Below, piece after piece: positions 48,737-49,939 of a stretch of 64,000 nucleotides of DNA; position 1 is the stretch's first letter, and every line of letters begins with the position of its first letter. The notes beneath the pieces were generated by a model. The model was not told the DNA's origin and did no database searches. It worked only from the letters and a program-made list of their open reading frames with translations. The translations under genes were made by a program, and so were the position numbers. Location: the NCBI GenBank assembly GCA_023150915.1, contig JAKLKA010000057.1:1-64000 (forward strand), in the 5' to 3' direction. This DNA is from Polyangiaceae bacterium (GTDB lineage: Bacteria > Myxococcota_A > Polyangia > Polyangiales > Polyangiaceae).

Positions 48737-48859
48737 CGCTCTCTCGTTTAGCACGGCCCCGCTGGCTCTCGGGTAGCCCTGATGCGCAGCCGTGCCAGCG
48801 TGTGCCACACTGCCAGGCATGCGTCTTGCTGGCACGGGTTCGTGCTCTGGAGGAGTCCA

Positions 48860-49939
48860 ATGCGAAAGCTGATCGGGGCGGGAATGCTGGCCGTGGCGGC
48901 GTGCGGCGGCCACGCGACCAATGATTCCGGCAGCGGAGGAGGCGGCACGGGTGCGAGCGGCGGCCAGGCGGCGAGCGGCGGGGTTGGCGCCACCGGAGGC
49001 GGCGGGCTGGGCGCCACTGGAGGGTATGGATGCTTCGAAGCGGGAACGCTGATCGCGACGCCTTTCGGCAGCACCCCCATCGAGAGACTGCGGGTCGGTG
49101 ACTGGGTGCTCGCGTACGACGCGAAGCTCCATCGCACGGTTCCACGACCAGTGACCGCGACCATGATTCATCTGGGCGAGCGCGTCGGCGAGTTGCCGAT
49201 TGGCGACGGGCGGACCTTGCACGTGACGCCGAACCATCCGATCTACTTGCCCGACGATGACCGGTACGCGCGCGCGGACGCGATGGTCGAACAACGGCGC
49301 GTCTTGGTGCTCCAGAACAATCGTGCTGTGGCGAGCGCGGTGAGCAATCCGTTCGCGCTTTCAGCGGTGGAACGGACTGCGACCGTCTACAACATCGAGG
49401 TTGCCGAAGAGCACAACTACTTTGCTGACGGAGTGTTGGTTCACAACAAGTCAGGCGGGATGCCGAATTGCATTCCGACCGACGGCGCGTCGGGCGGCCC
49501 GGGGGGCGAGTGTCACGCCACCGAGCCTTGCCTGGACCCCAATCCCGCGACTTGGCCGAGCGCCGAAACCGGAAGCGCCGGCGCCTATGAAGAACGAGCG
49601 CTCTGCTCGCCGGCCGATCCGGCTGCGACGTATCTCGTCGCGATGGACGCGTTCAGTGAGTCGCCTTTCGCGCGCTTCGACGTCCAGTCGGGCGATCAAG
49701 CGTGCGAAGGGGCGATGGTGGGCGCCCTCGCGCTGCCGCTTCAGGCGGCGGCCTGGTCGACGCACTGCTTTGCTCTGCCGGGGGACAAGCTCGACCTCTT
49801 CCTGGCGGTGGGCGCAGACCCGGCGTGGTCGGGCAATACCAAGCTGAAGAACCTGCGCTTCGTCAGCGAATGCGCCTGCAAGCGCAAGTTGTTCGCGGCT
49901 GGGCAGTGTTACCCCATCCACACTAGCGATTGCGAATGA
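48860..49939 (+). CDS. Lipoprotein with a Hint (intein-like) domain
   Basis: This encodes 359 residues from ATG 48860, with GGAGGAG just upstream. The signal MRKLIGAGMLAVAAC is followed by a Gly-rich linker (about 17-57). A Hint domain spans Cys58 to Asn196. It has a Cys start 'CFEAGTLIATPFGSTPIERLRVGDWVLAYD', block B 'TLHVTPNHPIYL' (T-x-x-H), and the end 'VYNIEVAEEHNYFADGVLVHN' with the His-Asn pair needed for Asn cyclisation. Lys197 follows. About 160 residues of C-terminal Cys-rich protein come after. This is the layout of a bacterial intein-like (type A) element, which can cleave or splice in cis. Whether it is active is unknown. Confidence 0.88.
   Translation: MRKLIGAGMLAVAACGGHATNDSGSGGGGTGASGGQAASGGVGATGGGGLGATGGYGCFEAGTLIATPFGSTPIERLRVGDWVLAYDAKLHRTVPRPVTATMIHLGERVGELPIGDGRTLHVTPNHPIYLPDDDRYARADAMVEQRRVLVLQNNRAVASAVSNPFALSAVERTATVYNIEVAEEHNYFADGVLVHNKSGGMPNCIPTDGASGGPGGECHATEPCLDPNPATWPSAETGSAGAYEERALCSPADPAATYLVAMDAFSESPFARFDVQSGDQACEGAMVGALALPLQAAAWSTHCFALPGDKLDLFLAVGADPAWSGNTKLKNLRFVSECACKRKLFAAGQCYPIHTSDCE

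What the first reader, a model, noticed from the sequence alone, without database searches (positions are those of the whole stretch)
48860..49939. Lipoprotein bearing a bacterial intein-like (Hint) domain between a linker and a secreted Cys-rich domain
Cys58 to Asn196 has the first-residue Cys, the T-x-x-H block and the C-terminal His-Asn of an active Hint domain. Cleavage or splicing at this point would release or ligate the C-terminal domain from the lipid anchor. That would provide a self-processing release mechanism on the cell surface.
Basis: partly seen in the sequence, partly recalled or inferred. Interest (0 to 1): 0.75.

Follow-up and report, generated by a model that had tools for sequence, protein, structure and literature searches.

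The report
Self-cleaving intein-like domain in surface lipoprotein
A soil-type bacterium (Polyangiaceae) encodes a predicted membrane-anchored lipoprotein that carries a complete, probably self-cleaving intein-like domain just after its lipid anchor, and relatives across Myxococcota keep the catalytic residues plus an unexplained, always-present lysine right after the cut site.

Summary
Window 48860-49939 (+) encodes a 359-aa predicted lipoprotein (lipobox VAA|C15), a Gly-rich linker, a Hint domain from Cys58 to Asn196, and a 10-Cys C-terminal domain. Pfam, NCBIfam, the PDB sequence search and an AlphaFold model (pLDDT about 90; VIA Z 20-22 to BIL domains and inteins) agree on Hint. It lies nearest the type A bacterial intein-like (BIL) domains. 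Cleavage, or aminolysis-type ligation as described for type A BILs, remains. New here: at least 20 Myxococcota lipoproteins share the plan lipid-Cys, a short spacer (median 5 residues), Hint, His-Asn-Lys, then an unrelated C-terminal part. In all 20 with His-Asn, +1 is Lys; two decayed members lost both Asn and Lys. Lys is in 0 of 25 members of the toxin-type Hint branch. Thus Lys +1 appears to belong to the Hint machine. The window's C-terminal domain was found only fused to Hint (3 copies, 183 genomes). No activity was shown, and whether the C-domain is released or re-attached to the lipid peptide is open.

The parts
48849..48855 (+). Shine-Dalgarno-like GGAGGAG before ATG 48860
   Evidence: read in the sequence
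48860..48901 (+). signal peptide, residues 1-14 (MRKLIGAGMLAVAA)
   Evidence: lipobox VAA|C read in translation; similar lipobox in at least 20 relatives; processing not tested
48902..48904 (+). Cys15, predicted lipid-modified residue
   Evidence: lipobox
48905..49030 (+). Gly/Ala/Ser/Thr-rich linker, residues 16-57 (N-extein with Cys15)
   Evidence: pLDDT under 50 for residues 6-55
49031..49447 (+). Hint domain, residues 58-196 (Cys58, Thr123-x-x-His126, His195-Asn196)
49448..49450 (+). Lys197, +1 residue, invariant in the lipoprotein group
49451..49936 (+). Cys-rich C-terminal domain, residues 198-359 (10 Cys)
   Evidence: no Pfam match; homologues only fused to Hint in G111; low-confidence model

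Best explanation
The gene makes an exported lipoprotein with a built-in type A BIL-like self-processing domain. Inferred steps: after export and lipidation of Cys15, Cys58 (helped by T123/H126) turns the G57-C58 bond into a thioester, and Asn196 (helped by H195) cyclises and breaks the N196-K197 bond. Because +1 is Lys there is no Cys/Ser/Thr trans-esterification. The freed C-terminal domain, which now starts with Lys197, either leaves (release into the medium or periplasm) or attacks the N-terminal thioester with an amine and becomes joined to the short lipid peptide while the Hint domain is discarded. Shown here by sequence: the architecture, the fold, and the conservation of both catalytic centres and of Lys +1. 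Not shown: any cleavage, the product ratio, surface location, and the job of the C-domain. The conservation of both ends makes a reaction using both ends more likely than C-terminal cleavage alone.
For: Hint fold and motifs. Of about 140 Hint columns, 15 (residues 58-197) are invariant in 15 lipoproteins (the 14 relatives are 28-52% identical to the window); they include C58, T123, H126, H195, N196 and K197, while residues from +3 on are not conserved. At least 20 lipoproteins with His-Asn have Lys at +1. Two decayed relatives, L111 (VHDR) and L126 (VHDH), lost Asn and Lys together. The C-domain occurs only behind this Hint. Published type A BILs lack the +1 nucleophile and give cleavage products and some splicing through thioester formation, Asn cyclisation and attack by the freed amine (PMC4031507; PMC7664689).
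Against: No activity data. In several relatives the part after Lys is a short or low-complexity tail (L033, L043, L052, L037), for which 'release of an effector domain' makes little sense. A Hint can be conserved for structural reasons. The set of 15 was chosen as lipoproteins ending in His-Asn-Lys; counting the two decayed ones, Lys is in 20 of 22.
Confidence: 0.62

Rival explanations
1. Lys +1 itself is the nucleophile: its side-chain amine attacks the Cys58 thioester and makes a stable isopeptide bond between the lipid peptide and Lys197, then Asn196 cyclises. The product is a C-domain carrying a lipid peptide on the side chain of its first residue.
For: Lys +1 is as invariant as the catalytic residues, although what follows is unrelated, and is lost together with Asn in decayed members. 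The Tetrahymena BIL2 domain, the best Foldseek match, is described as forming Lys isopeptide bonds (PMC8616854).
Against: In BIL2 the deposited construct has Met at +1, so its lysine lies elsewhere. Lys +1 also ends proteins (HNK stop in L047, L101), where such a product would be odd. Lys could act on Asn cyclisation or positioning instead.
Confidence: 0.12
2. Hedgehog-like or BUBL-like transfer: the Hint activates the lipid peptide as a thioester and hands it to amines of other molecules, and the C-terminal part only tunes or anchors the reaction.
For: The N-extein is a short lipid peptide (3-9 residues between the two Cys in 17 of 21 proteins). C-terminal tails are short or low-complexity in several relatives. 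BIL2 dispenses its N-terminal domain to other proteins (PMC8616854).
Against: Asn and the +1 residue would not be needed, yet both are invariant. The window's own C-domain is conserved, with 9 invariant Cys in three homologues. No acceptor was found.
Confidence: 0.1
3. The Hint is no longer active and serves as a structural domain between anchor and Cys-rich domain.
For: No activity shown; some relatives visibly decayed (L111, L126; fragment L196).
Against: All catalytic positions at both ends are invariant across proteins 28-52% identical to the window, more than a fold alone demands.
Confidence: 0.14
4. It is a polymorphic-toxin (PT-HINT) protein whose C-terminus is a toxin freed by the Hint.
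For: Passes the PT-HINT gathering score; toxin-type Hints are common in the same family.
Against: Toxin-type Hints fall on another branch, none of whose 25 members has Lys +1. The C-domain has no Pfam match and no conserved neighbour such as an immunity gene was seen.
Confidence: 0.02

Closest known systems
Type A bacterial intein-like (BIL) domains (e.g. C. thermocellum BIL, PDB 2lwy)
   Same: Hint fold, Cys1, T-x-x-H, His-Asn, no endonuclease, no Cys/Ser/Thr at +1; lies in a non-conserved exported protein
   Different: placed after a lipid anchor; Lys +1 invariant in the lipoprotein group, whereas no Lys +1 rule turned up in the BIL papers read here
Tetrahymena BUBL1 BIL2 (6y75, 6tmm)
   Same: closest Foldseek match; BIL chemistry ending in amine attack (PMC8616854)
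   Different: eukaryotic polyubiquitin-like context, Met at +1 in the solved construct, no lipid anchor
Pretoxin HINT (Pfam PT-HINT PF07591)
   Same: profile match above gathering score; Hint upstream of a variable C-terminal domain
   Different: no recognised toxin domain, separate branch, Lys +1 absent from the toxin branch sampled
Hedgehog C-terminal Hint (1at0)
   Same: same fold (VIA Z 20.1), N-terminal thioester chemistry, lipid theme
   Different: Hedgehog adds cholesterol to the preceding domain; here the preceding peptide already bears the lipid, and His-Asn is present

Membership tests
Type A BIL domain | Hint fold | tested here: met
   model pLDDT about 90 in 58-196; VIA Z 21.0 to 2lwy over 136 residues, rmsd 1.8
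Type A BIL domain | Cys1, block B T-x-x-H, C-terminal His-Asn | tested here: met
   C58, T123/H126, H195-N196
Type A BIL domain | no Cys/Ser/Thr at +1 | tested here: met
   Lys197
Type A BIL domain | self-cleavage and/or splicing | not testable with these tools
   needs protein experiments
Type B BIL domain | no similarity to intein block G | tested here: not met
   VHN with intein_Cterm TIGR01443 match
Intein (class 1) | Cys/Ser/Thr at +1 | tested here: not met
   Lys197
Intein (class 1) | interrupts a host protein that also exists without it | tested here: not met
   C-domain never found without Hint in 183 genomes of the order
PT-HINT polymorphic toxin | PT-HINT domain | tested here: met
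   33.6 bits against cut-off 27.7
PT-HINT polymorphic toxin | toxin domain after the Hint | tested here: inconclusive
   no Pfam match for the C-domain; fold not predicted with confidence
Hedgehog autoprocessing domain | sterol-recognition region after the Hint | not tested
   no specific search made; C-domain without Pfam match
Bacterial lipoprotein | signal peptide with lipobox Cys | tested here: met
   MRKLIGAGMLAVAA|C by inspection; similar in relatives
Bacterial lipoprotein | lipid attached to the Cys | not testable with these tools
   needs protein chemistry

The most novel reading that the evidence does not exclude
A family of lipoproteins uses a Hint with an obligatory Lys +1 to swap the lipid peptide onto the downstream domain through the Lys amine (possibly an isopeptide bond), that is, protein splicing without a Cys/Ser/Thr nucleophile, working as a lipid-anchor transfer device at the cell envelope.
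Probability: 0.15. Interest if true: 0.85.

Novelty: new variant of a known kind. Interest (0 to 1): 0.5.

Why it matters
BIL domains have been known for two decades (Amitai et al. 2003, cited in PMC4031507), but what they do in their hosts is mostly unclear. A set of small lipoproteins, with a few residues between lipid and Hint and an invariant Lys at +1, gives a compact test of whether bacteria use Hint chemistry to free or re-anchor surface proteins, and whether Lys +1 replaces the usual splicing nucleophile.

Tried and rejected
Intein in a host protein: rejected (Lys +1; C-domain never without Hint). Family expansion within the genome with different C-termini: own genome has one copy. Conserved partner gene: no neighbour shared between the window and relatives beyond three scattered pairs. 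Defence system: PADLOC gives only a weak homing-endonuclease match to the block-G region, E 0.0097. Plasmid and phage records: only remote Hints, none covering 80% of the query. Fold of the C-domain: single-sequence prediction failed (pLDDT 33); in the full model it is mostly at 50-63 with strands, and no fold was named. Check for lipoproteins with another +1: 20 further regions of the order were read and none held a short-spacer lipoprotein with His-Asn and another +1 residue. Literature: no paper in the library on Hint lipoproteins of myxobacteria was found.

Full report
Observation. The stated ORF is real: 48860-49939 (+), 359 aa, with GGAGGAG just before the ATG. It reads as signal peptide with lipobox VAA|C15, Gly-rich linker, Hint C58-N196, Lys197, and a C-terminal domain with 10 Cys. 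Pfam finds Hint_2 (6.8e-9) and PT-HINT (5.4e-8) above their cut-offs. NCBIfam finds the intein C-terminal splicing region above its cut-off. The nearest solved sequence is a BIL domain, 2lwy, at 2.2e-7, or 2.2e-22 with a profile of 15 lipoproteins. AlphaFold with ten aligned sequences gives pLDDT of about 80-94 for the Hint and low values for linker and C-domain. Foldseek and VIA-align give BIL2 of Tetrahymena, 2lwy, inteins and Hedgehog.

Host. The window lies in an 8.0-Mb, 98.8% complete genome. It is in the same family as G159, one of whose contigs has the same length as a Polyangium sp. y55x31 contig and carries the same Hint gene, so Polyangiaceae, Myxococcota, by inference. The gene is single copy here. 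The two other genomes of the genus gave no such protein (G001 only a partial match to the N-terminal half, G002 none at that cut-off).

Relatives. In 183 genomes of the order, 67 have a Hint match to the lipoprotein-based profile at E <= 1e-10. Reading the frames shows several classes. One class has the same plan as the window: lipobox Cys, short spacer, Hint, His-Asn-Lys, then an unrelated C-terminal part. I count 20 such proteins with intact His-Asn (window, L032, L136, L033, L104, L043, L052, L037, L051, L113, L035, L115, L116, L118, L117, L122, L155, L156, L157, L158), from several families of the order and from other parts of the phylum. The number of residues between lipobox Cys and Hint Cys is 3-9 in 17 of 21 (the 20 plus L111) and 23-42 in the others, the window included.

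The +1 lysine. In 15 aligned members (the relatives are 28-52% identical to the window), 15 columns between residues 58 and 197 are invariant, among them C58, T123, H126, P127, H195, N196 and K197. +2 is Ser in 9 of 15 and nothing is strongly conserved from +3 on. So the conserved unit ends with Lys, not with Asn. Lys is 1.5% of the residues in these sequences. The set was picked as lipoproteins ending in His-Asn-Lys; two decayed relatives left out (L111 with VHDR, L126 with VHDH) lost Asn and Lys together. Twenty further regions of the order contained no short-spacer lipoprotein with His-Asn and another +1. In a tree of 98 Hint domains the branch holding the toxin-type Hints (25 rows, 97/84) has no Lys +1, whereas Lys +1 is frequent elsewhere, including Hints of Verrucomicrobiota, Elusimicrobiota and archaea. 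The tree has few columns and many open forks, so one or several origins cannot be told apart. In the 97 Hints with His-Asn, Asn was never the last residue of the protein; where the Hint ends the protein, exactly one residue (Lys or Tyr) follows in most cases. This fits a need for the Asn-X bond, that is, Asn cyclisation, but a structural need is not excluded.

The C-terminal domain. In the window it has homologues only in G111 (two genes), always behind a Hint. Nine of its Cys are invariant in the three. No Pfam match. Other members carry unrelated Cys-rich domains, long domains of unknown kind, or low-complexity tails. No conserved neighbour was found.

Mechanism. Type A BILs lack a +1 nucleophile, form the N-terminal thioester, cleave at Asn, and can join the flanks by attack of the freed amine, cleavage products dominating (PMC4031507; PMC7664689). 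All the needed residues are here at both ends, and both ends are conserved, which argues for a reaction using both. Release of the C-domain and its ligation to the lipid peptide are both open. The invariance of Lys +1 is not explained by the published scheme as read here. Candidate roles: amine donor (alpha or side chain) or help for Asn cyclisation. Lys isopeptide formation by a BIL is on record for Tetrahymena BIL2 (PMC8616854), but that protein has Met at +1 in the solved construct.

Verdict. Observation confirmed; interpretation partly supported. A new variant of the type A BIL kind: lipid-anchored, with obligatory Lys +1. Nothing about activity, surface exposure or C-domain function has been shown.

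Noticed in passing
L006, L022, L028, L030, L029, L031 (G021, G035): Polyangiaceae proteins with an N-terminus like Flp pilins (RRGVSAVEYALIL...) followed by a Hint and toxin-like C-terminal domains; 11 matches in one genome (G021).
   Followed up: partly
L048, L060, L063, L082: Tandem Hint domains joined directly (VHNKGCFLP...) just after a signal peptide ending ARGGGGC, in Verrucomicrobiota, Lentisphaerota and a Syntrophaceae MAG, all with Lys +1.
   Followed up: partly
L014, L015, L017, L019, L026, L027, L188, L195, L197: Polyangiales lipoproteins or exported Cys-rich proteins with a C-terminal Hint that has the N-terminal half but ends in ...TGTY.A.G...GST instead of His-Asn (perhaps N-terminal cleavage only).
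   Followed up: no
L042, L044, L046, L049, L119, L121, L123, L023, L129, L160: Hint domains at the very C-terminus that end in His-Asn-Tyr and stop; several are preceded by a degenerate second Hint in the same protein (e.g. L159).
   Followed up: no
L158: One lipoprotein with two Hint domains, both ending His-Asn-Lys.
   Followed up: no
L196 (G169:C1 around 8002772-8002948): Remnant of a lipoprotein-type Hint (ends LLVHNKS, stop) with an interrupted frame: probably a decayed copy.
   Followed up: no
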